This document shows positions 26,370 to 57,420 of a stretch of DNA of 64,000 bases, piece by piece. Made by a program: the position numbers and the translations under genes. The stretch's first letter is position 1. Each line of letters opens with the position of its first letter. This DNA comes from Leptobrachium leishanense (taxonomy: Eukaryota > Chordata > Amphibia > Anura > Megophryidae): contig CM019069.1 of NCBI GenBank assembly GCA_009667805.1, positions 58,397,422 through 58,461,421 of the forward strand, read 5' to 3'. The notes beneath the pieces were generated by a model. The model did not search any database, was not told where the DNA came from, and was given only the letters and a program-made list of their open reading frames with translations.

Positions 26370-27219
26370 AAGAGATAAACAACACCATACGGCGCATGAA
26401 TTGGTATAGCAGTAGTGAATAGTTGATTAATAGACAACTGGTTAATATTGAATAAAATGTAAAATTATGAATGAATAAAAGTGTCCTTTAAAAATGCTAA
26501 ATAGAAAAAGAGTAAAAATGTGCAAAAAATACGAATATAAAGATGAGTCAATTAGTGCAAATGAGTGTTCAAAAGTGCAGCAATTCAATACTCAAAAGAG
26601 TGTTGTTGATTGAAGACAAGTGTGTCAATCTTCTCTGTGGTATGTATACCAGATCTTCTCTTTAAAGGTGTCCCTCAAAAGGAATAAAACATAAAGGCAA
26701 TAATAGTGCAGATGGTCGTACTAAAAATGGAGTAATTCAATAGAATCGATGTATGTACCACTCACATTTACTGGAGCCTAAGGGAAATCCAGGCTCAAGG
26801 AAGATAGCTTGCGGCCAAATATAGGGTGGCACGTCCCTCCTTTCGTCTATGGTGGTTACTAGATAAAGCAGAGAGAATCGGGAGACGGCACTCCCATGGC
26901 GTAACTCTGTGCGTATATTTGGAAAATTGAAATAAAATTGGTCACACTCACCGAGTATAGAGCCTCTCAATACCAGGCTCAAGGGATACCGCCTTGGGCT
27001 CTCTTGAGGTGGAGGCCCAAACCCCTTTGGTGTAGCAGCAGTTGATCCAGATGTCCAAAAAAGTAGGGAGATGGAGAAAAAGTGGCGAATGCAAGATATA
27101 AAATAATAAATTTATTGGAAATAATAAAATCCTGGACAAGTTATACCGAGACGCGTTTCGGCTGAAAAGCCTTCCTCAGTCGGTGTATTTAGTGTCCATA
27201 AAGTGCAATAAAAAAGTAG
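26370..27219 (-). repeat. Left inverted arm of element A
   Basis: This is the reverse complement of 28348-29196, with about one indel (near 26666) and very few substitutions. The small open frames on the two arms encode identical peptides, which reflects the inversion and not a gene. The near-identity implies a recent insertion or gene conversion. Confidence 0.95.
27146..27184 (-). ncRNA. Hammerhead ribozyme-like motif, left arm of A
   Basis: This is the mirror copy of the motif at 28384-28421: core CTGAGGA, a 3-bp helix II, then GAAA and a minimal helix III ACGCGT. It is oriented opposite to the right-arm copy. Confidence 0.55.
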
Positions 27220-27220
27220 T

Positions 27221-27890
27221 ATCCAATAATATATCCCTGCTTTTTGGTTCATTTATATTCTTTGTTTTTTCGTTTCTTTTATACGAAAGAAGAACGCTAT
27301 ATACATCTTTTCGTTTCTTATATACGAAAGAAAAACGTTATCAACTACTAAGTCCCAAAACCGAATAAGCTTTAGGTTAACAGCTAAGTTCCATATATGA
27401 ACGAAAACGAAACTAAAAAGTTTTCGCAAGGTCTCTCTGGGTAAAACCCAGACTATGGATACGAACGAAAATGAAACCAAGAGAATTTTCGCAAAGCACT
27501 TCTGGGTAAAAAGGGCCTTTTCCGGTTCATGTACGGCGAAAACTAAAGAATACATGTATCCAACAATATATCCCTGCTTTTTGGTTCATATACATTTTTT
27601 CGTTTTTTCGTTTCTTTTATACGAAAGAAAAACGCTACATACACCTTTTCGTTTCTTATATACGAAAGAGAAACGCCATTAACCACCAAGTCTCAAAACC
27701 GAATAAGCTTTAGTTAAACAGCTAAATTTCATATACGAACGAAAACGGAACTAAAAAGTTTTCGCAAGGTCTCTCTGGGTAAAACCCCAGACTATGGATA
27801 CGAACGAAAATGAAACTAAGAGAATTTTCGCAAAGCACTTCTGGGTAAAAAGTGCCTTTTCCGGTTCATGTACGGTGAAAATTAAAGAAA
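27221..27890. repeat. Two tandem units of about 337 bp in element A
   Basis: Unit 1 (27221-27557) and unit 2 (27558-27890) both begin ATCCAAYAATATATCCCTGC and contain TATACGAAAG, TTTTCGCAAGGTCTCTCTGG and TTCTGGGTAAAAAG blocks in the same order. There is no coding potential. The region is rich in CGAAA/TTTCG. Confidence 0.88.
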
Positions 27891-28347
27891 GAAATTTCTA
27901 TTGCTTTATTTTTTTCGTATCGTATATAAATTATTTGACCTGCATTTTACCTCATTTCAACATGTAAGAACTATGTGTGCATTCCGATTACGATATAACT
28001 TTTACGAATATGCGTACAATTCTATTGGTCGATCCTTTTGTTTACTTCCGATGCGAAAAGTTGTTCGTTTTTCGAATCCCTGTACTTCATATAAGTTATA
28101 ATTTGGTTTTAAGCTTCGTTTTAAATCTTCCCCATAAAATAATTGTTCTAAAGATTCGTAATTGCCGCGATCGCCCATGCATTGCATTTATTTTCGTTTT
28201 TATTCCGAAACGACCGCAAAGCATCTCTGGGTAAATCCGAACGAACGGAAATCGACCAACAGGAAATAGGGAGTTAACAATCCCAATGTGGCAGGAAATG
28301 CTATTAGTATGTTATACTATATAAGAGGACACTTTCACTTTTCACTT

Positions 28348-29196
28348 CTACTTTTTTATTGCACTTTATGGACACTAAATACACCGACTGAGGAAGGCTT
28401 TTCAGCCGAAACGCGTCTCGGTATAACTTGTCCAGGATTTTATTATTTCCAATAAATTTATTATTTTATATCTTGCATTCGCCACTTTTTCTCCATCTCC
28501 CTACTTTTTTGGACATCTGGATCAACTGCTGCTACACCAAAGGGGTTTGGGCCTCCACCTCAAGAGAGCCCAAGGCGGTATCCCTTGAGCCTGGTATTGA
28601 GAGGCTCTATACTCGGTGAGTGTGACCAATTTTATTTCAATTTTCCAAATATACGCACAGAGTTACGCCATGGGAGTGCCGTCTCCCGATTCTCTCTGCT
28701 TTATCTAGTAACCACCATAGACGAAAGGAGGGACGTGCCACCCTATATTTGGCCGCAAGCTATCTTCCTTGAGCCTGGATTTCCCTTAGGCTCCAGTAAA
28801 TGTGAGTGGTACATACATCGATTCTATTGAATTACTCCATTTTTAGTACGACCATCTGCACTATTATTGCCTTTATGTTTTATTCCTTTTGAGGGACACC
28901 TTAAAGAGAAGATCTGGTATACATACCACAGAGAAGATTGACACACTTGTCTTCAATCAACAACACTCTTTTGAGTATTGAATTGCTGCACTTTTGAACA
29001 CTCATTTGCACTAATTGACTCATCTTTATATTCGTATTTTTTGCACATTTTTACTCTTTTTCTATTTGGCATTTTTAAAGGACACTTTTATTCATTCATA
29101 ATTTTACATTTTATTCAATATTAACCAGTTGTCTATTAATCAACTATTCACTACTGCTATACCAATTCATGCGCCGTATGGTGTTGTTTATCTCTT
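28348..29196 (+). repeat. Right arm of element A (presumed functional orientation)
   Basis: The arm holds the hammerhead-like motif, then CCAATAAATTTATTATTT, then two small hairpins GAGCCT...AGGCTC (28587-28607 and 28771-28793), each followed by GTGAGTG. Elements B and C have the same order of parts in the matching positions. Confidence 0.85.
28384..28421 (+). ncRNA. Hammerhead ribozyme-like motif, right arm of A
   Basis: Helix I pairs CCGA (28384-28387) with TCGG (28418-28421). The core CTGAGGA (28388-28394) fits CUGANGA. After one extra A, helix II pairs GGC with GCC around TTTTCA. GAAA (28408-28411) follows, then ACGCGT as a two-pair helix III with a GC loop, then the GUC cleavage triplet ending at 28417. 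The extra A before helix II departs from the textbook core, so activity is uncertain. Confidence 0.6.
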
Positions 29197-29456
29197 TGTC
29201 TTAGTCTTGACACATATTTTGGTTGTTTTTTATGTGTTTTTACCATACTTTAGGCTGCACTTAACTATTTATTAGTGATCCACATAGCACTTTAATCAAT
29301 TCCTAAACCAACAAGCGCCCACACTGTATAGTGTATATTCGTATACACATTTTCTAATCAACAGAATGGGGTAGACTATGCCAATCACGGCTCAGAGTCC
29401 TGATTGTGAGCCCATGATTGGGCAAAATTTGCCCAGAGCTAAGCCCCGCAGCACAC

Positions 29457-29466
29457 TATATAAGGC
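29457..29466 (+). promoter_or_regulatory. Possible TATA box of the hAT gene
   Basis: CTATATAAGG lies about 370 bases upstream of the likely start codon at 29829 and upstream of the repeated leader. Its position fits a transposase promoter, but nothing else supports transcription. Confidence 0.35.
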
Positions 29467-29504
29467 TTCAAACAGCCCCAGCACGTGTATTTTGAGAGGA
29501 GATT

Positions 29505-29775
29505 GTTCTGTTGGGGGGGGGGTCTCACTTCTACAAAGATATCTGGGAATTGTTGTAATCTGTGTGTTCTCACTGCCAGCAGCTATGGGGGAGGGGTCTC
29601 CCTTCTAGAGGATATCTGGGAATTGTAATCAGTGTCTTGTCACTGCCACCCATCAGGGGGGTCTCACTGATTTATAAGAGGTTTCTGGGAATTTTAATCT
29701 GTGTCTTGTCACTGGCTGCCAGCTATCAGGGTGTCTCACGGAGTTATACCAGAGTTCTGGAACTCTTTAATCTAG
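29505..29775 (+). repeat. Imperfect tandem repeats of about 75 bp in the hAT leader
   Basis: Four diverged units each contain a G run, GGTCTC, a TTCTAC/TATAAG-like stretch, ATCTGGGAATT and TGTCTTGTCACTG. They precede the transposase start and probably belong to its 5' leader. Confidence 0.75.
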
Positions 29776-32091
29776 ATAACACAATTGAATCAGAGTTCTG
29801 CATATCTTTACTCAATATATCACTCACCATGTCAGAAAGACCAAAAAGGACAGGCAGACGCTCCCAGACACAGATAAGAGGGCAAGCAGCCTCTGTGTTG
29901 GGAGGCTGTGGCTCTGGTCGTCGTGGACGTGGTGCATCCTCTGCCGGGGCACGCTTGTCCTTTCTAACTGGTGCTGGCCATCTTAAGCAGCAGCAACATA
30001 CAGAGAATTTGCAGGATTGGCTAACCAGGCCATCCTCATCCTCTGCCAGCCAGGCTTGTAGTGGTTTACAGTCCACCTCGGCTGCCAAAACATCTAATTC
30101 CGCCTCCATTTCCACAGCTACTCCTGCCGTAGCCTATCACACACGGAGGAGTCAGCTGAATTATTTGACTACAATGATAGTGACATGCTGCTTGAGGTTG
30201 TGCAGCAACTACAGTCCTCGGATTCAAACTCTGAGGTTGAGGAAGGGAGTATAATCAACCTGAAGGAAGGGGGTGCCAGCGACACACAAATAACTGGCAC
30301 TCATGTTGCCCCAGCAGCATACTGCCAAGTTGGCTCCAGAGACGAGGAGATAGGGGGTGATGACGATGATGAGGTCACTGACTCCACCTGGGTGCTTGAT
30401 CGAACAGAGGAGTCTAGGGAGGAGGAGGAGGCACAACAAAAACGAGGAAGAACGTCCTCTATGACCAACCATAGCCAGTCCAAGGCATCAGAATTCACAG
30501 CTGCTCAGGTGCAGAGTGCTGTTGTCTCAAAGCACATGTACAGGAAGTCTGCTGTCTGGGAGTTCTTTAAGAAATGTGCAGCAGACCGCACCGTTGCCAT
30601 TTGAAATCTATGTCAGATGAGGATCAAGCGTGGGAAAGACACCGGACGCTTGGGTACCACGTGCTTGAGGCGACATATGACCACCTGCCACGCATCCCGT
30701 TGGCACAACACTTTGCAAAGGTCCTCCTCATCTGCCTCTACCCCACTATATGTCCTGCAATGTCATTGCCTACAACCTCCACTGACAGGGAAGATGCTAC
30801 AGTAATGGGTGTACCAGGTCCTCAGAATGTGACAGCATCCCATCAGCTGAAGATTTACGCAGTCAGATTACATTGCCCCAGCTGCTGCAGCGTAAGAAAA
30901 AAATATAGTCCCAACCATTCCCAAGCACAGCGTCTAAATGCCAGCTTAGCAAAATTACTCGCATTACAGCTGCTGCCTTTCCATCTGGTGGACTCGGCTT
31001 CCTTCCGTGAATTTGCTGAATGTGCTGTACCACAGTGACAGGTTCCAAAACGTCATTTATATTCACGGAAGGCCATTCCAGCACTATACCAGCATGTGGA
31101 ACACAATGTTATGGAGTCATTGGGAAAGGCAGTCAGCAGCAAGGTGCACATGACTTTAGACACGTGGCCCAGCAAGCATGGACAGGACCGTTACATTTCC
31201 TTCACGGCACACTGGGTAACTCTGATTGCAGCTGGGAGGGATCCAAGACGGGGCTCTGTGCTGGAGCTTGTTCATCCACCACGCCTCCAGAAAGCTGCTT
31301 GTTTGAGGTCTGTCTGCTCCACCACCTCTTCCTCCTTCTCTGTCTCTGGCAAAGTGGCAGTTAAACCGACGCATGGAAGGGGCTATGCAATGGCTCAAGC
31401 AAAAAGATGCCATACTGTGCTTGAGCTGGTTTGTTTAGGGGACAGGAGCCACACCAGGACAGAAATTCTGTCAGCTCGGCAGGTGCAGAGATGGTTAACA
31501 CCACGCCAGCTTCAGCTGGGAATGGTCATCTGTGATAATGGCGGCAACCTTCTCTCCGCCCTACGCCAGAGTAAGTTGATACATGTACCATGCCTAGCAC
31601 ACGTCCTAAATCTGGTGGTACAGCGTTTCCTAAAGAGGTACCCAGGGCTGGCATAGCTTCTCAGCCAGGCCAGAAAAGTCTGCAGCCACTTCAGATGGTC
31701 ATTCCCAGCAAGTGTTCGCCTGGTAGAAATTCAAAGAAAATTCCACCTTCCCACAAACAGTCTGATCGGTGACATTCCCACCAGGTGGAACGCGACATTA
31801 GCAATGCTGCAGCATCTGCACAAACAGCAGAGGGCCATCAATGAGTACCTGGGTGAGAATGGCACAAGGACAGGTTCAGGTCAACTTGGTTCCCCCCCCG
31901 CAGTGGCTGATGATCAAGGATGCATGCACTGTACTGTCACCATTTGAGGAGGCAACGAGGATGGTGAGCAGGGACAGTGCATGCATCAGTGACAATTCCT
32001 TTAGTGTTCCTGCTGGAGCGCACTCTGCGGGGAATTATAGATGTGGCATTATTTCAGACTGGGTTTTTTTCCTTCTTTTGGATCAACAGCA

Positions 32092-32167
32092 GTAGGTTAT
32101 GTGGGAGAGGCTGAACCCGATGGATGCATGTCTTTTTTCAGCCTATATAACTATGTAACTATGTAAT
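32092..32167 (+). mobile_element. LINE 3' tail (TATGTAAC repeats)
   Basis: GGCTGAACCCGATGGATGCA and TTTTTTCAGCC lead to TATATAACTATGTAACTATG, the 3' end of a CR1-like family. It is inserted in the hAT transposase. The same tail appears reversed at 38968-39052 and in part at 58678-58708. Confidence 0.7.
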
Positions 32168-32679
32168 ATTAGAGGCAGAGCAGCGAGAGGAAGAGGAGGC
32201 CTTTCCTAGCTCTCAAGGCCTCAGTCTATATGCAGACAGCATTCCTGCGGGTCCTCAGATCAGACAGGAGGAGGATGAGGAGGAATATTTAAGTAGTGGG
32301 GGCATTGAAGGTGGGGATTCCTCAAGGGAGGGTTTTGTGTGCCCAGAAACCCAAGGACTAGTACGTGGCTGGGAGGAGGAAGTGCACGATGGGGGGTCAT
32401 CCTCATTGACCAGGAAGATTCGGAAGCTAATGCCACCTCCAACCTACGCTGCATGGGCTCCCTTATCCTGAAAAGCCTGGTAAAGGATCTCAGGATTTGT
32501 GCTATCAAGGAGAGGGATCATTACTGGTTGGCAAGCCTTCTTGATCCACGATACAAGGGTAAAGTTGCAGAGCTCATCCTGCCCACACAGAGGGAGCACA
32601 GGATGAAAAAACTTGAGGACGCTCTAAAGTGACACTTGTGTAACACCTTTCCAGGCACTGGTAGGTTACCAAAAGATGA

Positions 32680-34070
32680 TAGAAATTGACCTGAATCGGC
32701 GCAAATGTGCTTTCTGGGGTCCTGGGATCTCATATATACATAGAAGAGAATAAACAATAATAGTGTAACATCGTCGATGATAGATAATAGTCTCCCACTT
32801 ACAAATCTAGAGCCTTAACACTGGCTCTAAGTGGGTCCAGGCGTGTGGGTGATTTTTCTTCTAATTTCTCAGGTGGCCCCCACCTTATTTGGACTGGTGA
32901 TACCAGATTCATGCAGTGGAAGACAAAAAAAGAGAAGAACACTCCTTGCGCAGATCTATGAGAACTATAGCAAGGTAGATTTGAGATCTTCTACTCACAT
33001 TTCCTCTCCAGGTTAAGCGCCCATGGGTTTTAGGAGAACCCAAAGAAAACCACTTCTTATCCAGAGAAATGGCACAGCTGACACAGGAACAGAAATTCAA
33101 ATTAAAATTTAATTTTAAAAACAATAACTTCCAAAACGCGTTTCGCCGCTTAAAATCACGGCTTCATCAGTTGGTATGAGTACATTTATGCCTTAGGTCC
33201 TTATATAGTGACCCCTAATGTCCTTAAGGGTCTCCAGGTGTCCTGTTCTGTGCCTTGATGGTCCCGATATTCCCCCAAGCATCTAGCGATGGGCGCCGCC
33301 ATTTTGCGCATGCGCAATGGCACTTCCGCGTTCCACTGCGTTCCAACCAGAGTTCTCCACTTCCGGTTTCAATTTCAATCACTTTATGTGCGCTTTCCGG
33401 GGGTCTCTTTCGTTTATAACACAGCTCAAATCAAAAGAAAAATATATTTAGGGGTAAAAACACTTAAAATATCTTCCCTAAGAAGGAAAATCTATCTCCC
33501 TTCTTTTATTTCTATCACTATGCATCCCGCAAGACTCCTCTCTTCACCTTATGAAAAAAGGTCAAAAAAATCCCCAAAAAAAGGCTAATGGTTGATAATA
33601 TCGACTATACATAAAAACCTTATGTGTCTACTACATTATTATTCGGCTATTATATTGAGTGGTCCTATTTAAAGTGCTGTCTTATTTAATAATTTCCCTT
33701 GCTCCTTTATCCAATGTGCTTATGTATTTCCTTCAACATGTAAACTCTTTGTGAAGGTGCTTACTAAAATTTTTTTCCCCTTTCCCCTTCTTTTTTTTTT
33801 AAAAAACAAAAACAAAATATTTCCTAAAGGGTAATTATATTTTTCTAGTGCATCAGGTCTAAATGACTAATGTTTAAAGTGCTATGTGCCTTTCTTCTTT
33901 ATATCTTTATTGTTAACATTTAAAGTGCATGGTGTTTTTTATAGGGGTCCCCAAAATATGTGCAAACTTTATACATATCAAATATATGTATTAAAATAGT
34001 AGTAATAATAACATAGTAGCGCCGTGGTGGTGGATACATATAGTGTGGCGCTGCACCATCTCTTATCTGT
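32680..34070 (-). mobile_element. Hammerhead-bearing retroelement B inserted in the hAT gene
   Basis: It is flanked by the 12-bp target duplication ACCAAAAGATGA (32668-32679 and 34071-34082). On the minus strand it runs from a GCGCCACACTATATGTATCC start, through ACATAGCACTTTAAA and GCACATATTTTGG blocks, to the hammerhead-like motif (33131-33174) and then two hairpin plus GTRAGT modules. The start motifs match the 160-bp tail of element A, which follows A's right arm. That suggests the two copies are circular permutations of one repeat unit. No protein gene is visible. Confidence 0.75.
33131..33174 (-). ncRNA. Hammerhead ribozyme-like motif of element B
   Basis: Read on the minus strand, helix I pairs CCAA with TTGG. 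The core is CTGATGA, the canonical sequence. After one extra A, helix II pairs GCCG with CGGC around a 10-base loop. GAAA, then ACGCGT and the GUU cleavage triplet follow. Compared with elements A and C, both helices change by compensating substitutions. Confidence 0.62.
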
Positions 34071-34534
34071 ACCAAAAGATGACACAGGTGCTTCGGAGGC
34101 TGCGGATGATCAGAGGAAGAGCGGTGAAGGCCAGGCCGCTTGACGGATGCCTTTTTAAATTTTTTTAGTCCACGACGCTCAGGGACGTCAAATGTAGGCA
34201 CTCATTGCCAGCGTCTTCACCATATGGTGCAGGACTACCTAGAGGCAAGGGCAGACCTGGATACCTTTACAGCAGATGATCCACTAGCTTACTGGGTGTT
34301 GAGATTGGATCACTGGCCAGAACTTAGCCAATATGTTATGCAGCTACTAGGTTGCCCTTCATCCAGTGAGCTTTCTGAAAGGATGTTCAGTGCCGCTGGA
34401 GATTTTGTCACAGACAAAAGAGTGCGTCTGTCCCCCGACTCTGTAGACCGGCTGACATTTATAAAAATGAATCAGTCCTGGATCAGCAGCTATCAATCCC
34501 CTGATGCTGACGTAACGGAATAGATCGGGGATCT

Positions 34535-34790
34535 CTTCTGCATTACCAAAACCTCCACCCTCTTTCACAATACCTCAGAGGGGTTACTTTGTGAAGGCAC
34601 TATCTGGCACCAAAGGCCTACTATTTGGGTGCATTGCCACTGACGCCTATACCAGATTCCTATCATTTTAATATTGGACCACAGGGTCCAACCCTGCACT
34701 CTTCCACAATACCACAGAGGGGTTACGGTGTGACGGCACTGTTGCCGACACTAAAGGCCCAATTTTAAAGCACCTATTGATACTTTCATC
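34535..34790 (+). repeat. Duplicated segment in the hAT 3' region
   Basis: A block with TTYCACAATACC, CAGAGGGGTTAC, GTGAAGGCACT and AAAGGCC occurs at about 34560-34620 and again at about 34705-34770. It is non-coding and is probably part of the hAT 3' UTR. Confidence 0.7.
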
Positions 34791-35320: not shown

Positions 35321-38300
35321 CATAGGACAAGAGTGCAGGCCATGGAAGAGTGCAAGAGTGCAGGTCACAAGGCCAGGGCACTCAAGGGCCAGGTATGGCG
35401 GTCAGAGCCATGGTGGCCACCACAATGACACACCTAGAGTCAGACCTGAAACGCCAAAAATAAAAAAGGGAAGGAGAAGGGGGACCCAAGAACGATTCAG
35501 AGCATGTGTTAATAGAAGTTTTCAATGCAAAAAACATGAATATTAAAATAAGATATTTAATGCTGGTTTTTATTGGTCTCTATCATATGTCCTTGCTTTC
35601 TTCACCAATCAGAATATGTTTAAATCTTCAGGTTCACAAGGATGTCCTTGGAGAATGATGCTCCATAAACTACTGTATATATTGATAGGCCACGATGAAA
35701 GTCTAGAAGGAATTCTGTCATATCTGCAACACCATGGAGGTATAACCATGTCAACTCTGCTGGGACTTGAAATTTCAGTCCTTAACAGAAAAGAAATGTA
35801 AGGTGAAGGTCACAAAGTATAGGAAGTGTTAGTTTACAGTAACCTGCCACAACAGTCAAACCACAAACTTGCTTTGAGGCTTAGCTGGAATAGAAGGGGA
35901 GTCGTTACGATTAACAAGTGCGAGGGTTATCATTAAAACGGCTATGTTTAACAGCTGGCGTGAAATATGGCCCAGTGTTCTTACTGGAGACTTTTTGAAA
36001 GGCTGGAGGCACAGAAAGACTTGGCAATTGGAGCTCTGATGGAACTACTTCATCAAAAATTGTGGGGCCCCTTACGGCACTGTTTGACGAATAGCCCTTC
36101 CCCCAGCTGCTCATTTCAGTTAACCAATTAAAAATAAAACTTTTTACCTCCTCTTGAGCAAAATCCTTGGTGGTACAGCAAGGAGGTCCAAGTCTTCCCT
36201 GTTAAAAGTGCCAAGTCTACACCTCTGTCTGGTGCAGACCATACGAATTCCTTCCTCAATGAAGAGTCAGAGAGTTCTTAACAACCCTGGATGACACAGC
36301 CTACAGGGAAATTTGTTCGCATCTTCTTGGTGGGCCAGTCGTAGTGACACTAAGACTCTTAAATCTGGGACAGTCTGACAAGCTACATAGCGTTTGGAAA
36401 GCTCCGGGACCACCTGAACATAGTCTGTCACCCCCTCCACTTGGTGGCCCTGAGATCTATACTTACCAGACTGAGTTAAAATCACAGATTGTTACCAGAA
36501 CCATCCTCTTTGTACCAGAATCTCAATATATGACCCTGTTGGAACATATTTGGTAGTATTGAAGATTTATGTAGGGGCATGTATATGGAGAGTTATGTAA
36601 AGACCTGTATTCTGAACTGAATTATAGAGAAACCAGTCAATGCAAAGAGTGACAGAGGGGTTGGGTGCGAGACGTATGTGATATGAAGTACCTTTAGCAG
36701 AGGCATTGATTAAAGCCTGTAGAAGATTAATCTGGGATCATTTAAGGCCAATAAGAAGGTTACATTAGTTGAAGTGAGACAAGTAAGAGCATAAATAAGC
36801 ATTTTACTAGTGTTCTGAGAAAGTGCCCCCCTCCCCCTTTAAAGTGAGAAGGAAAAGGAGTTGCTTATTTGCCTGGATGAATAATGCTCATAACGTTTCT
36901 GAATAACTTCCTGTACAGCACTCAATAGCTTCCGTGCAGACCGACACATCCACAACAATGTAACCGCAAGCAATAAAACGTTTTAAAAAAATAAGTGACA
37001 AAGATGGTTGCTTCTTTCGCAGAGAAAAAGCTTGTTTAGATAAAATGAATAGGAACAAAAAGAAGAATACAAACTATTATTGATGGCTCTTATTTCATGC
37101 CGAAAGTCAGTCCAGCACCTGAAGGAGCCACTCATTGATCTCAGTGAGAAATACATACACCCCCCTCCCCCAGTTTTGTGTAAAATTGAGCAGCTCTTTG
37201 TTAAACATTGATAAGTTGGAGCAGGTATGTGTTTTGAAGCACATCATAGTCACATATGGCTTTTATTGATGCTGCCAATGAAATTTTTTACATGACAACT
37301 AAAAACTTTACCCACATACATTCCACATACTTGGGTATTCATCAGGTCTTTATGAAATTTAGTTAGTAACTGAAACACTGTAACAGGACAACCTTGTCTG
37401 TTGTTGTTCTGCTCAAAGTCCCAAGAGTGCTGGAGTTTCTTGCTGGACCAGTCATACATCATGCCATTACGCGCACAGCGTAGAAACACGGGGCTTTATA
37501 CCAACCCTGGTGTAAACTTAACTTAGCAACTCCATAGATTTTAATGGTTCTGAAAAGTTTACAACAGCTCTGGCTAAATATACACACGGATTGTAATTGA
37601 GCCCATATTGTAGTGTAGGGATTACTCAGCAGACATAAATCAGAGAAGTTGAAGGGGAAAATCACCATTCATTTACTTACTCAAAATGTTAATATTCATT
37701 TCACAAATTGGAGCTTTTATGATGGGGGAAGGGGCGTCTTGATTAAAGTACTAACATGGCTTCATCTTGACAGTATCTCTGGCCATTATGCCTATTTTTT
37801 TAAGCTCTAAATTTTAACTCTGAAGCTGAATAGATTATTTTTAAGACAAACAATATAAAAATGAATAGAAATATAATTGTATGTTGGATCCAGGAGTGAT
37901 GGATATGGGGTTTACCAAGGTATGGCTCAGTTTACACAGTGTCTTCCATTTGATCTACCAGAACACACATACTATATTCTGATACCATAAACTTTGACCG
38001 AGGAGTTCCTATTCCTGTAGTTGTACGTAGATCATCTCACATACAGTTTTTCTCATGCAGATTTCACAACTTCTGAGTCAGGACTGTGCAAACGTCCAGT
38101 GGGATATCATCTGACAGACTGTGGATCTAAGGATCTCTCTAGCCTGCCCATTCAAGACCAGTGGGGTGACCAAACCATCCCCTTGACTAGCCCAGATCTA
38201 GCCTTTTAGAACGATTAAGGCAGGCATTCTGTTCCCAATCGCATGTCCCTCAACCAGCCAAGCCAATAGGTCCATACACAGATGACAACGAGGTATAAAT

Positions 38301-49395: not shown

Positions 49396-49486
49396 TGTGA
49401 GGGACTGCAGTTCTTCCACTATTATTAACATTTATTTATATAGCACCAACATATTCCGCAGCACTGAACAATGTTTACAATACAGT

Positions 49487-50149
49487 TGTAGCGCTGTTTA
49501 AAACTCTGTTGCTGTATTGCTCGGGTTTGGCCACCAGAGGGAGACAAGCGCAATGTAAACTATACTGGCCACAATGGGACTACGTTTTCCAGCATGCTTT
49601 GGGGCAGAGACAGAAAGTGGGTGGGAAAGGAGAAAAGGACATTTGAAGCCTCGTTCGAAGGAGAGCCAGTGTGAGCCGAGCGGTGAACAGAGTAAGACGC
49701 ACGTGAGACTGTGAGCGATTGTTACCAGGCTGGAGAGCAGGCGCTTCCTTGCCGACGCTGGGGATCGATAGTGACTTGCCAGAGACCTAGTAATCCACCG
49801 CTGAGAGGTTTTGCACAGACAGAGTTCCAGATTGGACCCCGAGTAAGGAGACCGCGATGATCCACTGGGAGTGCAGGCGGTAGGCCGTAGATCTTGTTGT
49901 AGAAGACGGACAAGCAGGAGAAGCGGATCCGGTGGCAGAGGGTCCTAGTATAATCCAGCGGAGAGACGTCCTTGATCGGGCAGCAGAACAGATTGTCTGA
50001 CGGATGGGTGAGAGGCCTTCCAGGCCACAGTCAAAGTTTAATGAAGCACGCTGCAGTATTGCTTAAATCTACAGGGCCCCAACGTGACTAGTCGAAGATT
50101 TATTAAATCCATTCACTGACCAGTCGAATATAGTACCCGGGTACCTGAG

Positions 50150-50196
<47 letters not shown>

Positions 50197-50454
50197 ACTT
50201 TTTGGGACATAACCTGCACGGGACTTACACTCCAGAGACGAAGGGGGTTAAACTTTTTTTACCGCTGTGTGTTTCTCGCATTACGACATCCTGTTTTCTA
50301 TATACCGTGTTTACATTATATATGCCGCTTTATTGAGACCAGTAAAGCATCTAATTTATAAAATCCACAACAGTGCTGGTGTATATTTATTCCCTAGTGC
50401 GGAGAGACTAACCCGAGGTTAAATTCAGCGGCTCCTCCGGGAGTGAGCGCTACA
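49487..50454. mobile_element. Solo LTR in an L2-like tail
   Basis: It begins TGTAGCGCT and ends AGCGCTACA, a perfect 9-bp inverted terminus of TG...CA type. It is flanked by CAGT (49483-49486 and 50455-50458), a 4-bp duplication. An AC microsatellite lies inside. No internal genes remain. The L2-like sequence resumes on both sides, which confirms the borders. Confidence 0.8.
50152..50194. repeat. AC dinucleotide microsatellite
   Basis: A perfect CA/AC run of about 43 bases inside the LTR. It should be polymorphic between individuals. Confidence 0.97.
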
Positions 50455-50598
50455 CAGTGTTAGAATACACTGAGCCCGAACAACATTTTACAAACCAACA
50501 CAGGAGAAACAAGAACACTATTCTCATGGGAACTTACAAATTGAGAAGTGCAAGCAGAAACGTTGGTCCTATTTGACCCACACACTGAAGCTTTAGAT

Positions 50599-50766
50599 CA
50601 GTGTTTCTCAAACATGTCCTCAGGACCCTCTGACAGGCCATGTGTGCAAGATATCTGAGCACAGGTGATAGGATTTCCTGCTCAGGGATTGCAGGATTCA
50701 CTCTGCATTTCCCCCAAGGTGATTGGGCATGTTAGAGGGTCCTGAGGACCGGTTTGGGAAACTGTG
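50599..50766. mobile_element. hAT-type MITE with CTTTAGA[T/G] flanks
   Basis: The left end is CAGTGTTTCTCAAAC and the complementary right end is CACAGTTTCCCAAACC. The 8-bp flanks CTTTAGAT (50591-50598) and CTTTAGAG (50767-50774) differ by one base. It is related to 43028-43211. The target resembles that of the hAT at 6764. Confidence 0.8.
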
Positions 50767-50887
50767 CTTTAGAGGATTAGCTTTCAGTTCTAGCTTTACT
50801 TTTATTCCACAGTAAATATGAGAATTCCCATAATGATTCCATAAAACTCAGTATGTAACCCTTATATCTGTTGGACCTTTTTTTTTT

Positions 50888-50972
50888 CCTCTCTCTCCAG
50901 CCTTCCCACAAAGTATTTTACCGGGAAGGATACTTTGAGAATTCTCTCGTTTTCAAGTATGTCCTGGGTACT
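50888..50972 (+). repeat. Interspersed repeat, GGAAGGATACTTTGAGA type
   Basis: AAAGTATTTTACCGGGAAGG to TTCAAGTATGTCCTGGGT matches the reverse of 38861-38920 and the copy at 54503-54562. Confidence 0.65.
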
Positions 50973-51000
50973 TTTTTATTATGACAATAAATCCTGTTTA

Positions 51001-51286
51001 GGGCAGTGTCAGACGAGCGTTCTGACGAGTGGAAGGAACGCCCATGAGAGTGGACGTTCCTTCCCCTCTGACGACCGTCTGGCCATCTCGCTGAGCGCAG
51101 TGAACCTCTTATGGAGGTTCGCGCTTTACAGCCCCAATGCACGTCGTAGCGCTTCGACGGGGGAGGCTTTCTAAACGGACGGTGCATGCCTGCTGTAGCA
51201 TGCGCAATTCGCAAGTGTGCTACAGCGTGTGGCCGGCCCTGTCGCAGCGTCACAACGGATGCCAGGAGGCACGTCTGACACCAGCC
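51001..51286. mobile_element. Harbinger-type MITE, copy a (diverged)
   Basis: It is flanked by TTA on both sides (50998-51000 and 51287-51289). The ends GGGCAGTGTCAGACG and, complementary, GGCTGGTGTCAGACG are inverted repeats. It is a diverged member of the family at 52996, 53761 and 62955. Confidence 0.7.
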
Positions 51287-51428
51287 TTACATGACAAATT
51301 TCCTCAAGGTATTACTGTAAACTTATTGCAAGAGCAACCATACCTTTAGCTTTTAAAATTATGCCCCCTCTTCCAAAAAACAAAAACCCTGAACAGTATT
51401 TAAAAGACATTGAGCAATATTCCAAAAG

Positions 51429-52721
51429 TTGGTGCTAATTAACCAGAGCTGTTTTAACCACTTGGATGCTGAGGACGCGCTCAGCGCGTCCTCAGCATTC
51501 TCGCTGGTATGCGGAGGACGCGCTGAGCGCGTCCTCCCATTGGGGTCAGCGTTCGGCCGGGTTCCGGCCGATCGCTGGCCCCCCCGGTGCGGGCTGACAT
51601 CCTGGATGTCAGCTGCGCATCCGGGACCACAGCCGCCGGTATTAGGTGTCATCGCGGCAGCGCGATGACCCCTAATTCAGGTGCCCCCCCCGCATGTGCG
51701 GAGGAGGCGCCTGAAAGGGAGGGGGGGGGAGGTCCTTCGGACCTCTCTCCCTCCCGATCGGCGGCTCTGCGGGGGTTAACCCAGGCATCATTTGGAAGGG
51801 CACAGCCTGCCCTTCCAAATGATGCCTGACATTAACCCCTGGGGAGCTGGATCGCGAATCGGCGCTGAAAAGCGCTGATTCGCGATCCTTTCCCGGAGCT
51901 GGCCGACATCTTGGATGTCGGCCAAGCCTCCGGGAACTCCCCCTGAGGACTGGCGTCATCGTGCGTAGCACGATGACGCCAGTCCTGGACTTAACCCTTA
52001 ACTGCCACCAACGGTGGAGATAGGGAGTTCATTGGAACTCCCTATCTCCCGATCCGTGGCAGTTAGGGGTTACATTTTGGTATGGTTGGATCGGCCAGAG
52101 CATGGCCGTTCCAACGATACCAAACATGAAAGTGAAAAATGTTGTAAAAAATAAAAAAAAAAATGAAAAAAAATTATAAAAAAAAAATAAACACTTTTTT
52201 TATTTTTTTTGGTTTGTTAATGCAGCAATATTGTTCCCATTTCAATTATAATGTGAACAATGATGCTGCACTAACGATTTTTGTATGCGGTGCGTTTGTT
52301 AAAAATCGCGTAATTTTCCCCCAAAAAAAATGTAACGAGACCCCATCTCTAATTTTTTTAACAAGCGCACCCCATACAAAATATAACCGCAATTGCTCGC
52401 ATGTTAAAATTTGAAAAAAAACACTTTACACGCTGTAAATTATTGAAAATACATATTTTATTGCATTTTTTGTTATAATATACAGACATGACATAACGTA
52501 TACATATAATAATGACATATTATGAATATACCGAGTCTGACGGAAAGAACGATATATAATATGTCTGGGTCATATACTAAAATAAGCCTTAAAAACACGT
52601 TTAAACATGATGAGCAAAACCGGTAAAAATGACCTCAGCACAGGGGCGGGAAAAGCCTCAGCAGCGAAAGGGTTAAACTTAACATCTCCATAGACTACAA
52701 TGGCTCTGGTAAGTTAGGGCC
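51429..52721. mobile_element. Palindromic MITE f, split by piggyBac copy 3
   Basis: TTGGTGCTAATTAACCAGAG (51429-51448) and the reverse-complementary GGCTCTGGTAAGTTAGGGCC (52702-52721) are the arms of the family seen intact at 56333-56430. The MITE was opened at a TTAA in its middle by piggyBac copy 3. Confidence 0.7.
51458..52672 (+). mobile_element. piggyBac-type MITE, copy 3
   Basis: It is flanked by TTAA (51454-51457 and 52673-52676). Same orientation as copy 1 and very close to it, with the full hairpin chain at about 51465-52125 and the AT-rich right half. The right end reads CCTCAGCAGCGAAAGGG. Confidence 0.9.
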
Positions 52722-52995
52722 CATTATGTAGAAAACGCAAACCTGGGCAAAAAAAGGCATCATTGTAATAAAGACACAGTATAAAGACTGTATTAAAAGA
52801 CAAAAAAACAAACACGACAATACTAAGCTTATAGAGACACAAATCACTATGGGGGATCACTTACCGTCTTGACCTTCTACTCTCCCTATTCTTCCTCACA
52901 TCTATTTTCCATACCCCCCCATCTCTCTTCTTCGCCTGCTTATCTTTTCCCCTCAGTAAGTTAGAATTCTCCTTTTCTACCCATCGAGACGCTTA

Positions 52996-53375
52996 GGCTG
53001 GGGTCAGACGAACAGAGTTTTTACGTCCGTGAAGCCGCACTTTAGTACGTCCGTGGTAGCAGATCATAACGTCCAATGAAGGACCACACACGAAGTATGG
53101 CCGCACGGAAGTGCGGTCGCACAAAGCAAGCGGCAAATGGAAGAAGGTTAGCAAGAACGTTGAACTGCTAGTACTATAGAGGCCTGTGTGCGTGATTAGC
53201 AGACATCAGGCGCTGCCCATGTCCGGCCTACATCACGTCCAGACACACAAAGTTGCGATCCGTAAAAAGAAAAAAAAAAATCACGGACGTTATTGTGCAC
53301 CGTGTGACCACTACCGCGTATTCCGTCAAAAATACGCGCACAGTTCGAGGAAAATGCGTTCGTTTGACCCTAGCC
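52996..53375. mobile_element. Harbinger-type MITE, copy b
   Basis: It is flanked by TTA (52993-52995 and 53376-53378). The ends are GGCTGGGGTCAGACGAAC and, complementary, GGCTAGGGTCAAACGAAC. The interior is loosely palindromic, with CCGCAC, CGTGCG and GTCCG words. Confidence 0.82.
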
Positions 53376-53760
53376 TTAAGGTACTAAATCGAACCAGGTG
53401 TGTGGGGACTGTTGCGCATAATTGTTATGATGTGCGCACAATTGCCCTCCCCAGGCATTTCTCTCTGTTCTACACTGTATGTGCTGGTATGATAGTTTTA
53501 TGCACTGAATGTTTTGGAAACAAGCAATAACAAAAAAAGGAAAAGAAAACAAATAGACTCGTCGTTCTTTATGATGATCAGACCTAAAATCTAGCCAAAT
53601 AGAAACAGTATGGTCCCACCAAGACACAAGTCGCCATAAAAAAAGTACAAGTTAAAATACATCTTAAAAACAAATGAACAACAAGAAAGGGCATACAATG
53701 TAGATCTCACAGACCGCCATTTAAAAATAATAAAGCCAGAACAAAAACTATTCCGCTTTA

Positions 53761-54176
53761 GGCTAGGGTCAAACGAACGCATTATTTGCAGCGACAGTCA
53801 AAACGTGCGTCTGAACGCAGAGACGTATTTTTTCACGGAATGCGCGAAAACGGTCAGACGACGTGTATTTTCGTGCGTGATTTTTTTACAGATCGTCAAT
53901 AAAACATTGTGTCTGGACGTTAGGCAGGCTGGACATTAACAGCGTCTGACATCTCCTAATCACGCCGCTATGCCGCCGCAGAGCACTCTGTACATCAGTA
54001 CTAGCGGTTCTGCGTTCTTGAAAAAATGCGTTCGTTTGCCGCTTGCGTTGTGCGGCCGGACTTTCGTGCGGCTGTACTTCATATATTGGCTGTCATTGCC
54101 CGTCATTTGCTGCTACTGCGGCCGTGATTAAGTGCGTCTAAACGCATGTTAAAAATGCGTTAGTCTGACCCCAGCC
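53761..54176. mobile_element. Harbinger-type MITE, copy c
   Basis: It is flanked by TTA (53758-53760 and 54177-54179). The ends are GGCTAGGGTCAAACGAACGC and, complementary, GGCTGGGGTCAGACTAACGC. It lies in reverse orientation to copy b, only 385 bases away. It is 416 bp with no coding capacity. Confidence 0.85.
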
Positions 54177-54478
54177 TTAAGGATTGAGGTTAAAAAAGAA
54201 ATGATATAGCATTACAGTAAGGAACAAACGTTAAGGCCAAAAGAAATGATCATTTCACACCCAGTTGTAATATCTAGAGGTGCTGTATCACTGCGTGCCG
54301 TGTTATGCATCAGTTCTACTTCTATAAAAAGATTGCAACAACTAAATGTCTGTAGATAATGCGCACACACCAATAGAAATACAAAAAGGACTTCCAAGTG
54401 TTTAAATCCCTGCATGAGTTGCGAATCCTCTGTTTGCAGCTATGACAGATCTCAGCCACTTCTAACTTCTTGTAGTTT

Positions 54479-54562
54479 TGGGGGGGGGGGGTTGGGGGGG
54501 AGAAAGTATTTTGCCAGGAAGGATACATTGAGATTTTGCGCGTTCAAGTATGTCCTGGGTGG
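54479..54562 (+). repeat. G-run followed by an interspersed repeat
   Basis: A run of about 12 G, then TT and 7 G (54480-54501), could form a G-quadruplex. AAGTATTTTGCCAGGAAGG to TTCAAGTATGTCCTGGGTGG follows, a copy of the repeat at 50888-50972. Confidence 0.65.
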
Positions 54563-55367
54563 AGAGTAGGTTTCTTGTTGGTGCATTAGAATTGCTTATT
54601 GACAATTTCTACAGTCCCAGAAAGCAGAAGAAAATGGGAATTGAGAACATACGTCGTCAGCTGGCAACGCACTATGCGCTTATCATGTTTTAGATGGTCA
54701 AGCTTCTCTGGAGCTTCAGGTCAGTGTATGTCACTTTGTGAGCTCAGAGTTTTACGGCATTATTTCTCAAACAAGAGATACATGTTGTAACCTTAAGAAA
54801 ATAAGAAAAAAAACACATTCTCTTTCTAGGGTAAATAATACACTTTTAGTTCATTGTAAAAGCTGATAAAAACAGGCCGGGAAAAATGCAAATTGGGGCA
54901 AAAACGACTTCTTGCCAGGTTATAGATAATATTGCATGTACAGATGCCAGTGCTATTTAAACATTCAAGGAATGTCAATGTAAAACTTAAAACCACACAA
55001 TTTGTCATGCTTGATTCTGGAATTCTCTGCATTACTCGTATTTGGGGTTTTTGTTGTTCTGATCTTTGAAATGTGGGCACATGAAGGAACCTTCCACTGA
55101 CACTTTTGGCTTTTAAAATATTTCTATTAGTATGATGTATGGATGAAAATTAGAGCCTCTTTAGGACTAATTTGTTTTTCATGCTTCTATCGTAACTCAG
55201 CCATTGAAGATTCTGTTTATAATGTCGTTTAAGACGCAAATCTGCACACCTCTATAAATCATATTGGCCCCCCCAGTCATTACAGAACTGAAACCACAAC
55301 GGATATTGAATGGGCCAGGACAATCAGATTATTGTGGATTAGCCCTGCAATTCTCCACAAATACAAA
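54563..55367. other. Unrecognised DNA
   Basis: No gene, RNA or element recognised. Confidence 0.5.
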
Positions 55368-55685
55368 AGGTAGAGGAAGGGAGTATATTTAAAAGGAAAC
55401 AAAGTAGCAAAACAAGAGGACATAGTCTTAGATTAGAGGGGCAAAGGTTTAAAAGTAACATCAGGAAGCATCATTTTACTGAGAGGGTGGTGGATACATG
55501 GAACAGCCTTCCAGTTGAAGTGGTAGAGGCCAAAACAGTAATTGAATGTAAGCAGGCATGGGATAAGCATAAAGCTGTCCTAAACAAAAGATAAATCCAG
55601 GTAAAGTATCCATGTAATTGGGCAGACTAGATGGGCCAAAAGGTTCTTATCTGCTGAAATTTTTCTATGTTTCTATGTTTCTAAT
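55368..55685 (+). mobile_element. CR1-like LINE 3' end with TTTCTATG tail
   Basis: The fragment encodes the end of the reverse transcriptase (a KQSSKTRGHSL-like part, RFKSNIRKHHFTERVVDTW, NSLPVEVVEAKTV) and then a 3' UTR with GGGCAGACTAGATGGGCC. It ends in two to three TTTCTATG repeats. It is 5'-truncated. The minus-strand copy at 20113-20412 covers the same interval. Confidence 0.82.
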
Positions 55686-56332
55686 ACACTTAGAAAATAC
55701 GTTTAACTTCCCCAATTAACAGGTCTGTTCACTAAAGGGTAAAGTAAGGAGAAATGAAAAATCTACATCAAAATAGCCAAATCAGAAAAATTTCTCCCAT
55801 TATCTTCCTTTCCAAATCGGCTATCTGGTCTAGAGATTGTTCTTTTCTGCCAATTCTCCTAACTTCACTATTTATTGAATAGACCTGTAGGAGTCATCTG
55901 CCGATACAGTATATGAGTAAGATAAATACTTTCTATTAAATTTGAATAATTTGTTTACCATATCATTGAATCCATCGTGTTTGAAAGAATAAAGGGTTGC
56001 ATCCACTGAACGAAATGAGAACTGGTGATTGTGCAGGTTGTCCTGACAATGCGTTGGTGCTCCCCCCAGACTGCGTAAGGGATTTTTTTTCACTCTTAGT
56101 GAGCAATTAGACATTTTGAAGTGTTTATCAATTGTGACCTCTACTCCAACCCCCCTTGTCATGCAATCAATGAACGCTACCATAGGGATCGCCAAGATCT
56201 CCTATCCACTTTTATAATACGCAAAATGAGGAAAACAATGTCAATTACATGCTCATATGGGGTAACAAAAAGGCGAGACCAGAATTGTAAGGCTGGCCAT
56301 CCACTGGGTACGTAGTCCGACAACTGACTTAG
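55686..56332. other. Unrecognised DNA
   Basis: No feature recognised before the palindromic MITE. Confidence 0.5.
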
Positions 56333-56430
56333 TTGGTGCTAACTTAACCAGAGCTGTTTTAAACTTCCCAGAGCCATTATAGCCTATGGAGGTTTTAAGT
56401 TTGCAACTGCTCTGGTTAAGTTAGCACCAA
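56333..56430. mobile_element. Palindromic MITE e (intact copy)
   Basis: The arms TTGGTGCTAACTTAACCAGA and the reverse complement ending TTAGCACCAA enclose a short loop in a hairpin of 98 bp. Split copies are at 51429-52721 and 62941-63471. Confidence 0.8.
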
Positions 56431-56436
56431 CATTGT

Positions 56437-57420
56437 AATACTGCAGAAATCGCCATTTTGCGCATGCGCTCTGTGGTGTTATGCGTTCCATTTTGCGTGT
56501 CACGTAGTGCCCGGTAATGACTACGTTTTTTCTGGTCTCAATTTCGTTCGAGGTTGACTGAGAGTGGCCACACACTGGCCCAAAGGAAATTTTAAGTCAA
56601 TCGATTAATGCGTCTGGAGATTCGGAAAGACCAACGGAGTGGAACGCACGCTACTTCCGGGATCTTTCGTGACACGCAAAATGGAACGCATAACACCACA
56701 GAGCGCATGCGCAAAATGGCGATTTCTGCCTCATGCGGTTTTAATCAGTGGATTCACGCTAATTGTCGGATTCGGAACATGTGGGGACTTTTTATTTGAC
56801 TTTTATGTATTGAACTATTTAAGAAACGAATGTCAACCAGCCTGCAAACCAGCTGAAGAAGCCAGTATTTCTGGCGAAACGCGTTCTGGTCTCCTGGCTG
56901 AGCCAGTATTTTATTTATGTTTAATAAATAATTTTAATACATGTTCCCCTGGTGTTCTGGATTCAAAGAGGTGTTCGGGCTTCACCGTATATAAGCCCTG
57001 AGGCGCACAAACCAAGAGCTTGGTCCATAGCTCCTGCAAATGTGAGTTGAACAACTATATTATACCTATGCTATTTGAATTTTAGAAGATCTGCAAAAGG
57101 AGGTTGTTTTGCTTTCTTTCCATATCCATTTTGCATGAGCTGCATTCCATCCAATATAAGGTGTGGGTCGCCTTAAAAGACGGAGAAGTGAAAGATACCC
57201 AAAAGCCTCGATCCACTTAGAGCCAGTGTCTGGGCTCTTTGATTTGTGAGTGTAACACCACATTTCAGTATTTGCATCTCTATGTGTTAGTACCATCTGC
57301 ACTATATATTGTTTATTATCTTTTCCATATGCTCTTTACGAACTAAGAGAACCACCACCTACCATTCAGCGACCATCATCGCGCCACCAGATACGTACCA
57401 CTATCTCTGTTATTTTCACT
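56437..57420 (+). mobile_element. Hammerhead-bearing retroelement C
   Basis: A short inverted segment on the left (about 56437-56520, AAATCGCCATTTTGCGCATG) is the reverse complement of 56640-56735. The hammerhead-like motif lies downstream at 56848-56890, then TTTAATAAATAATTTT, then two hairpin plus TGTGAGT modules (57016-57049 and 57220-57252). ACCATCTGCACTAT near 57291 also occurs in element A (near 28851). The CGCCATTTTGCGCATGCGC word is shared with element B (near 33297). No protein gene is visible. The outer borders and target duplication were not found. Confidence 0.65.
56848..56890 (+). ncRNA. Hammerhead ribozyme-like motif of element C
   Basis: Helix I pairs ACCAG (56848-56852) with CTGGT (56886-56890). 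The core CTGAAGA fits CUGANGA. After one extra A, helix II pairs GCCAG (56861-56865) with CTGGC (56871-56875). GAAA (56876-56879) follows, then ACGCGT as a minimal helix III and GUU as the cleavage triplet. Helices I and II differ from those of A and B yet still pair. Confidence 0.62.

What the first reader, a model, noticed from the sequence alone, without database searches (positions are those of the whole stretch)
26370..57420. A retroelement family (A, B, C) whose copies keep a hammerhead-like core while its helices covary
Three separate insertions carry the same fold: CTGANGA, one extra A, helix II, GAAA, ACGCGT and a GUC/GUU triplet. Helix I is CCGA/TCGG in A, CCAA/TTGG in B and ACCAG/CTGGT in C. 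Helix II is GGC/GCC, GCCG/CGGC and GCCAG/CTGGC. Compensating changes in two helices around a fixed core are strong evidence of a selected RNA structure. Hammerhead ribozymes with very short helix III are known from Penelope-like elements and retrozymes. That these copies belong there is inference.
Basis: partly seen in the sequence, partly recalled or inferred. Interest (0 to 1): 0.9.

Follow-up and report, generated by a model that had tools for sequence, protein, structure and literature searches.

The report
Head-to-head ribozyme-bearing Penelope retroelements
Three elements in this piece of what is likely a frog genome carry the same small hammerhead-shaped RNA motif, whose core occurs about 28,000 times in that genome and whose stems change in matched pairs in the copies sampled; they are likely all parts of Penelope-type retroelements, the motif is predicted to be a self-cutting RNA of a kind already known, and many sampled copies lie head to head.

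Summary
A carries the motif twice, in head-to-head inverted arms; B and C carry it once. Among the three distinct copies 4 of 9 base pairs change on both sides. In the host genome (3.54 Gb) the core pattern occurs 28,218 times, against 11 for the reversed pattern. B resembles a pLTR beside such an ORF; C rests on similarity to B. Hammerheads in Penelope elements are known, so this is a new member of a known kind. Less expected: close same-motif pairs are head to head (13 of 13; 19 of 20 in the A family), nine abut, with 17 of 18 ends near the predicted transcription start, and none of 34 inverted-arm rows starts at the predicted cut. Cleavage was not tested.

The parts
26354..26369 (.). target-site duplication of A, left copy (16 bp)
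   Evidence: identical 16-mer at 29358-29373
26370..29357 (.). element A: head-to-head inverted Penelope-like insertion (inverted pLTR plus a 5'-truncated unit)
   Evidence: bounded by the 16-bp duplication; arms 850 nt with three differences; no Pfam match above a cut-off in six frames
26370..27219 (-). A minus arm (pLTR copy whose 5' end, 27219, pairs with 28348 of the plus arm)
27145..27184 (-). hammerhead motif A-
   Evidence: 61.7 bits
27219..27889 (+). 338-bp tandem repeat, two copies; matches DNA behind the ORF of the coding sibling
28318..28325 (+). TATATAAG, 30 nt upstream of the arm edge at 28348 (predicted transcription start about 28348-28350)
28348..29357 (+). A plus arm with a 160-nt extension ('tail') beyond the minus arm
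28383..28422 (+). hammerhead motif A+; predicted cut after 28417
28616..28621 (+). first GTGAGT of A (+228 from C3), behind a GAGCC/GGCTC hairpin
28802..28807 (+). second GTGAGT of A (+414 from C3), same layout
29358..29373 (.). target-site duplication of A, right copy
32667..32679 (.). target-site duplication of B, left copy (13 bp)
   Evidence: identical 13-mer at 34070-34082
32680..34069 (-). element B, inserted in an hAT relic
   Evidence: no Pfam match
32797..32802 (-). GTAAGT of B (+368 from C3)
32993..32998 (-). GTGAGT of B (+172 from C3)
33130..33175 (-). hammerhead motif B
   Evidence: 49.0 bits
33200..33207 (-). TATATAAG, 37 nt upstream of C3 of B
34070..34082 (.). target-site duplication of B, right copy
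56443..56504 (-). 62-nt perfect inverted partner of the C promoter segment
56668..56729 (+). C promoter segment with GCGCATGCGC (shared with B inside a 19-nt exact match)
56816..56823 (+). TATTTAAG, 37 nt upstream of C3 of C
56848..56890 (+). hammerhead motif C
   Evidence: 52.2 bits
57038..57252 (+). part of C homologous to B (71% over 221 columns), with GTGAGT at 57042-57047 (+189) and 57246-57251 (+393)

Best explanation
A is a piece of a Penelope-like retroelement, and B and C are likely pieces of related ones, whose terminal-repeat-like pLTR carries a minimal type I hammerhead motif that is predicted to cut its RNA mainly when two copies pair through the self-complementary ACGCGU. How it would work. 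(1) The pLTR holds a TATA-type box, and the predicted start of transcription lies about 30 nt behind it; C3 of the hammerhead is then about 7 nt (B, C) or 40 nt (A) behind that start, so the motif would sit at the 5' end of the RNA (box positions shown, transcription inferred). (2) Helices I and II form in one molecule (supported by covariation). Helix III alone would be 2 bp with a 2-nt loop, so the palindrome is predicted to pair with a second copy, in another RNA or in the other pLTR of the same RNA. (3) A GIY-YIG endonuclease and reverse transcriptase, encoded by siblings in the genome, would cut both target strands with a stagger of 13-16 nt, and both ends would prime at internal sites 0.5-1 kb behind the start (duplication lengths and insert ends shown, enzymology inferred from the anole element). 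(4) The two cDNAs run towards the RNA 5' end and are joined head to head (arrangement shown, process inferred). (5) In the inserts examined, no template end lies at the hammerhead cut; cutting would therefore act on other RNAs, such as tandem or read-through transcripts, or late in the cycle (inferred).
For: RNA structure. The base behind ACGCGT is T 33, C 25, A 2, G 0 of 60, the hammerhead cleavage-site rule (rule recalled). Extra A in 28,218 of 30,546 (the spacer ranges of the two patterns are shifted by one base); ACGCGT in 28,218 of 32,975 matches with the two middle bases free. Penelope link: exact core in 16 of 30 GIY-YIG loci, in 15 on the same strand and downstream; tandem hammerhead-ORF-hammerhead unit of 5,997 nt on C3; coding sibling of A; B-like pLTR beside a Penelope ORF end. 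Insertion: duplications of 16, 13, 15 and 13 bp; 13 of 13 same-motif neighbour pairs head to head, 19 of 20 in the A family; nine abutting joints with 17 of 18 ends within 10 nt of 28348; 0 of 34 inverted-arm rows start within 3 nt of the predicted cut. The anole element cuts and extends both strands, starts reverse transcription internally and uses unprocessed RNA (PMC11167929).
Against: No cleavage assay and no transcript data. No Rfam hammerhead model matches. The minimum-energy fold of A alone is not the hammerhead (-11.6 against -8.0 kcal/mol; B -11.8 against -10.4; C -11.3 against -11.0). 22 of 60 sampled copies miss the helix limits and 31 of 60 have no TATA-type box within 120 nt. 14 of 30 GIY-YIG loci lack the exact core nearby. 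C has no direct link to a coding element and no duplication; its genome search did not complete. 37 of 63 sites show no inverted arm in the DNA held, and arm starts scatter from -200 to +535. Only the best 40 of 1774 candidates were scored for the A arm, which favours long arms.
Confidence: 0.86

Rival explanations
1. The motif is a hammerhead fold kept for another reason: it does not cut in vivo to any effect but is retained as a folded 5' landmark, for example as a binding or dimer-forming site for the element's protein and RNA.
For: Insert ends show no cut templates; the anole hammerhead did not cut without protein and its mutants inserted normally in vitro (PMC11167929); ACGCGT stands in 85.6% of matches with the middle left free.
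Against: The base behind ACGCGT is never G in 60 copies, which is hard to explain without cutting. The core letters were fixed by the search pattern, so their constancy is no argument here.
Confidence: 0.22
2. The elements are retrozymes: small noncoding units spread as ribozyme-cut RNA circles.
For: Type I hammerhead in noncoding copies; amphibian retrozymes with dimer-acting hammerheads are known (PMC7229834, passages).
Against: A and B are 2,988 and 1,390 bp, not a few hundred; close same-motif pairs are head to head, not tandem; a coding sibling exists.
Confidence: 0.04
3. Element A is a DNA transposon with long terminal inverted repeats.
For: 850-nt inverted arms and a target-site duplication.
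Against: One arm has a 160-nt extension, duplications vary from 13 to 16 bp, the arms are pLTR copies of an RT-encoding sibling, and gaps between the arms of A-family pairs run from about 0 to 8,115 nt.
Confidence: 0.02
4. The conserved letters are a DNA site (for example for the endonuclease or a transcription factor), not an RNA fold.
For: ACGCGT is a palindrome.
Against: Both helices covary, helix I with four to six pair types at each of four positions, and pairing falls to chance at position 5.
Confidence: 0.02

Closest known systems
Minimal hammerheads of Penelope-like elements (Cervera and De la Pena 2014; Lunse, Weinberg and Breaker 2017; neither text is held or was read, known here from reference lists and reviews)
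   Same: Type I, helix III minimal or lacking, in the pLTR, may act as dimers (reviews PMC6155905, PMC7761336, passages)
   Different: Whether the extra A and the ACGCGT are described there could not be checked; here they stand in 92.4% and 85.6% of the counted matches
PAc (Poseidon) of Anolis carolinensis, PMC11167929
   Same: RT plus GIY-YIG ORF, pLTRs in tandem, hammerhead near the pLTR-ORF junction, optional tail
   Different: In PAc the hammerhead overlaps the ORF start; here the A-family pLTR runs 1010 nt from the predicted start, and that end maps 17 nt before the first open frame of the sibling
Pen2a_Av and other Adineta vaga Penelope copies, PMC3846280
   Same: Inverted pLTR head to head with pLTR-ORF-pLTR, duplications of 8-10 bp, optional tail, TATA box in the pLTR
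   Different: Duplications of 13-16 bp and longer pLTRs here; the passages seen do not mention a hammerhead
Axolotl and invertebrate retrozymes, PMC7229834
   Same: Type I hammerheads, the amphibian ones more active as dimers
   Different: Small tandem noncoding units; the copies here are larger, head to head and have a coding sibling

Membership tests
Penelope-like element | ORF with reverse transcriptase and GIY-YIG endonuclease | tested here: met
   Met in genome siblings, not in the window copies, which are noncoding. L156 has both domains over the Pfam cut-offs; L139 has GIY-YIG over and RT under (25.1 against 29.6 bits). The sibling of A has RT at 28.9 against 29.6 bits and no Pfam GIY-YIG hit, but aligns with L139 through its GIY-YIG part at 49% identity
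Penelope-like element | pLTRs in tandem or inverted arrangement | tested here: met
   C1: inverted, direct, direct; C3 tandem unit; A head to head. Not shown for B and C as whole elements
Penelope-like element | target-site duplication of variable length and optional tail | tested here: met
   A 16 bp with a 160-nt tail, B 13 bp; L164 15 bp, L209 13 bp. Not found for C; only 6-7 bp repeats for L182, L186, L194
Penelope-like element | place in an RT phylogeny | not tested
   No tree was built
Hammerhead ribozyme, type I | core CUGANGA, GAA, and a cleavage base that is not G | tested here: met
   an extra A follows the core. The core letters were part of the search pattern, the cleavage base was not
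Hammerhead ribozyme, type I | helices I and II supported by covariation | tested here: met
Hammerhead ribozyme, type I | helix III | tested here: inconclusive
   Only AC/GU with a 2-nt loop in one molecule; a 6-bp ACGCGU duplex is possible between two (-7.5 kcal/mol)
Hammerhead ribozyme, type I | match to a curated hammerhead model (Rfam 15) | tested here: not met
   No hammerhead hit at gathering or at E up to 10
Hammerhead ribozyme, type I | self-cleavage | not testable with these tools
   needs the bench
Retrozyme | noncoding unit of a few hundred nt with hammerheads in tandem | tested here: not met

The most novel reading that the evidence does not exclude
The palindrome at the 5' end of the transcript acts like a retroviral dimer-initiation site: it ties two template RNAs 5' to 5' as one two-ribozyme complex, so that the two cDNAs primed from the two cut target strands finish side by side and are joined head to head at the transcription start. 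The ribozyme would then be first a template-pairing device and only second a cutter.
Probability: 0.12. Interest if true: 0.82.

Novelty: new member of a known kind. Interest (0 to 1): 0.52.

Why it matters
[quoted passage not shown] This genome offers a natural experiment: about 28,000 exact cores whose stems drift in the copies sampled, and joints that record where template RNAs began. The joints examined show no template cut at the ribozyme, in line with the anole in vitro work, and put the ribozyme near the predicted 5' end of the transcript. That makes two roles (late cutting, or pairing of two templates) testable in an existing in vitro system. No Rfam 15 hammerhead model caught the window copies.

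Tried and rejected
Rfam: gathering scores over the whole window gave no match; E up to 10 over 26000-58000 gave 13 matches, all below their gathering scores and none a hammerhead; the single sites A+, B and C gave none either. Six-frame Pfam of A, B and C: nothing above a cut-off. Penelope proteins against the window by tblastn: nothing. Solved structures for the 802-residue ORF: no match at E up to 0.01. Viral and prokaryotic collections: matches used as controls. One search gave 100 of the 125 control loci to the model R1; the best score there is 28.6 bits against 49-61.7 in the window, but L139, L140, L144 and L224 score only 28.8 and L150 28.5, and two of the 19 GIY-YIG loci that R1 hits, L141 and L147, score 23.7 and 24.9, within the control range; so R1 near 29 bits or less does not separate real from chance, and the exact-core count (16 of 30) is the one relied on. 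A as a DNA transposon and the retrozyme reading were rejected as told above. Upstream similarity of A to B or C is at shuffle level (116 and 92 of 300 shuffles reach it), and A-B downstream is weak (8 of 300). A test of 5' ends by probe patterns either side of start and cut did not complete by the service, on DNA already held, is the substitute. An earlier count said 17 of 30 GIY-YIG loci; the listing gives 16, used here. The script did not recover the duplication of A found.
Full report
What was checked. The finding names three insertions, A, B and C, with one hammerhead-like fold. All are present. A covariance model built from the three finds four copies in the window and nothing else at E up to 10: 27145-27184 (minus), 28383-28422 (plus), 56848-56890 (plus) and 33130-33175 (minus); these sequences built the model, so this shows only that no fifth copy is near. 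Helix II of A is four pairs, not three.

Chance. On the three distinct copies 26 of 27 cells pair and 4 of 9 pairs change on both sides; 7 of 500 shuffles reach that count. Three related sequences are little by themselves, so the genome was used.

Genome. The window lies in a 3.54 Gb assembly, G000. The pattern CTGANGAAN{6,20}GAAACGCGT has 14,124 plus 14,094 matches, its reversed control 3 plus 8. From the start of contig C1, 60 regions around listed places were fetched, giving 68 sites, 60 distinct. Helix I pairs 1-4 are standard in 60, 56, 53 and 49 of 60, against 26.9, 25.3, 40.2 and 27.3 expected with independent columns; pair 5 is at 27 against 23.7, so on average the helix ends there. 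Helix II pairs 2-4 are standard in 59, 57 and 51 of 60 against 38.4, 34.8 and 24.1; pair 1 is nearly invariant. Helix I of 4 or more: 42 of 60, shuffled partners mean 8.2, maximum 18 in 1000. Helix II of 3 or more: 55 of 60, mean 20.9, maximum 30. Thirty-eight of 60 meet both limits, 22 do not. The base behind ACGCGT is T 33, C 25, A 2, G 0. In the 100 listed places 78 distinct cores show the same for helix II. The extra A stands in 28,218 of 30,546 matches when other bases are also allowed there (spacer ranges shifted by one base). GC stands between GAAAC and GT in 28,218 of 32,975 (reversed control 262). Stems have drifted through many pair types while these letters mostly did not; common descent explains part of that, but not the contrast.

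Penelope link. A GIY-YIG search returned 49 matches (150 of 1534 candidates scored), the first 30 with sequence. The exact core lies within about 1.5 kb in 16 of 30: in 15 on the same strand and downstream of the endonuclease, in L162 on the other strand. At the genome density about 0.75 would be expected (28,218 sites in 3.54 Gb, 95 kb searched), though some of the 30 loci are neighbours (L139 and L144, L160 and L161). The model R1 at E up to 0.001 hits 19 of 30, 18 of them same strand and downstream, two of these 19 at scores that controls also reach. On C3, hammerheads at 212032594 and 212038591, 5,997 nt apart, bracket ORF pieces and a GIY-YIG domain; the two pLTRs agree at 189 of 194 nt upstream and 129 of 137 nt downstream before the ungapped comparison stops. 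L156 carries RT and GIY-YIG in one ORF over the Pfam cut-offs; in L139 the RT score is under its cut-off.

Element A. A search with 28348-28905 gave 52 rows (40 of 1774 candidates scored). On C1 an inverted copy (206483177) and two direct copies (206485107, 206491031) form the classical Penelope arrangement. The DNA between the direct copies holds stop-to-stop ORFs of 395 and 802 residues. The 802-residue ORF matches RT just under the cut-off and has no Pfam GIY-YIG hit, but aligns from residue 199 to 800 with the RT and GIY-YIG ORF of L139 at 49% identity, through the endonuclease part. A 27219-28417, with its 338-bp repeats, is 94.9% identical to DNA behind that ORF and the start of the 3' pLTR, and A 28842-29357 is 98.1% identical to the end of its 5' pLTR. 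So A is a 5'-truncated unit with an inverted pLTR, not an independent noncoding family. It is bounded by a 16-bp duplication. Its arms differ by one substitution and two one-base indels in 850 nt, so it is young or homogenised.

Elements B and C. B is bounded by a 13-bp duplication inside an hAT relic (Pfam hAT dimerisation domain at 34128-34523). B 32689-33335 is 69.3% identical over 710 columns to L214, where a Penelope ORF end lies upstream of that pLTR on the same strand. In five of the 60 regions (L214, L215, L186, L209, L197) similarity to B stops at the same base, 32689, nine bases from the end that the duplication gives, as a fixed start of reverse transcription would leave. Penelope coding similarity lies in 7 of the 60 regions, whose flanks are short. 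C shares 221 columns at 71% and a 19-nt exact promoter block with B. No duplication was found for C, and its genome search did not complete. Outside the motif A is only weakly similar to B and C: A-C downstream exceeds all of 300 shuffles, A-B is reached by 8 of 300, upstream parts are at shuffle level.

Shared layout. TATA-type boxes lie 70 (A), 37 (B) and 37 (C) nt before C3. In 29 of 60 genome sites one or more are found within 120 nt, 31 of the 46 boxes 31-50 nt upstream; 31 sites have none. GTRAGT occurs twice behind the motif in A (+228, +414), B (+172, +368) and C (+189, +393). In the 60 genome sites it occurs in 43 (17 have none), mean 1.20 per 700 nt against 0.18 for its reverse complement, with a hairpin ending 5-8 nt before it in 43 of 72 cases; hairpins themselves are common in random 45-mers of the same DNA (72 of 120 reach the same score, against 63 of 72), so the spacing is the clearer signal. 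These could be splice donors of a leader intron; not tested.

Head-to-head insertion. Among the first 100 places, neighbours within 10 kb with the same motif (at most one difference) number 13 pairs, all head to head; the eight close pairs with different motifs are six tandem and two tail to tail. For the A family 49 long rows give, within 12 kb, 19 head-to-head pairs, element A itself among them, one tandem and no tail-to-tail pair; 10 rows are unpaired. Nine pairs abut with gaps of -2 to 14 nt, and 17 of their 18 arm ends lie 0-10 nt from 28348, which is 30 nt behind the TATA box; one lies at 63. That fits cDNAs that ran to the RNA 5' end. Scoring favours long arms, so a second test looked for any inverted partner arm around 63 sites (60 genome sites, A, B, C): 26 sites have 34 arm rows of 60 nt or more, some pairs seen from both sides; none starts within 3 nt of the predicted cut, the nearest being 7 nt before it (L210), and the rest scatter from -200, the limit of the query, to +535. 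In other families the inverted identity often runs past the predicted start into the promoter. The inserts examined thus show no template cut at the hammerhead. Head-to-head pLTRs with duplications are described for rotifer Penelope copies (PMC3846280, passages), and the anole protein cuts and extends both strands, starts internally and uses unprocessed RNA, while its hammerhead needed protein to cut (PMC11167929, main-text section read).

Literature and novelty. Minimal hammerheads in Penelope elements, which may act as dimers, are known from reviews and papers seen in passages (PMC6155905, PMC7761336, PMC7229834). Palindromic helix III sequences that allow dimers were noted for hammerheads in 2011 (PMC3088659, passages). 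The two key papers (Cervera and De la Pena 2014; Lunse and others 2017) are not held and were not read. Two searches, for Penelope, head-to-head and hammerhead (10 of 114 papers listed) and for hammerhead ribozyme, dimer initiation, palindrome and retrotransposon (10 of 21 listed), show no title or abstract that states the template-pairing idea (listings only). The host is likely a Leptobrachium frog or a near relative: the best of the 120 listed relatives of the sibling's ORF is from L. leishanense at 88% identity.

Verdict. The structure and its selection are well supported; the Penelope link is direct for A, good for B and indirect for C; the kind is known. The joints at the predicted transcription start and the absence of cut templates are the parts worth a specialist's time.

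Noticed in passing
window 29500-34560: Degraded hAT element (C-terminal dimerisation domain in 34128-34523) interrupted by element B; the outer limits are by eye
   Followed up: partly
window 24081-25109: Tc1/mariner-type transposase relic (DDE_3 and Tc3/Sleeping Beauty HTH domains)
   Followed up: partly
window 13781-18733: Broken LINE with endonuclease (13781-14134) and reverse transcriptase (17118-17921) domains by Pfam
   Followed up: partly
window 2946-4408 and 61225-62397: Two large satellite arrays with units of about 20-22 bp that stay open in several frames for hundreds of codons
   Followed up: no
window 56327-56436: Hairpin element next to C, with related stretches at 63379-63474, 37520-37577 and 52675-52715; Rfam miRNA names there are below threshold
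   Followed up: partly
window 56443-56504 and 56668-56729: Perfect 62-nt inverted repeat in the promoter part of C, around a GCGCATGCGC block
   Followed up: partly
L225:533-1720: 395-residue first ORF of the coding sibling of A with no Pfam family
   Followed up: no
window A, B, C and 60 genome sites: Recurrent hairpin followed 5-8 nt later by GTRAGT, twice about 190 nt apart behind the hammerhead in A, B and C; possible leader splice donors or protein-binding sites
   Followed up: partly
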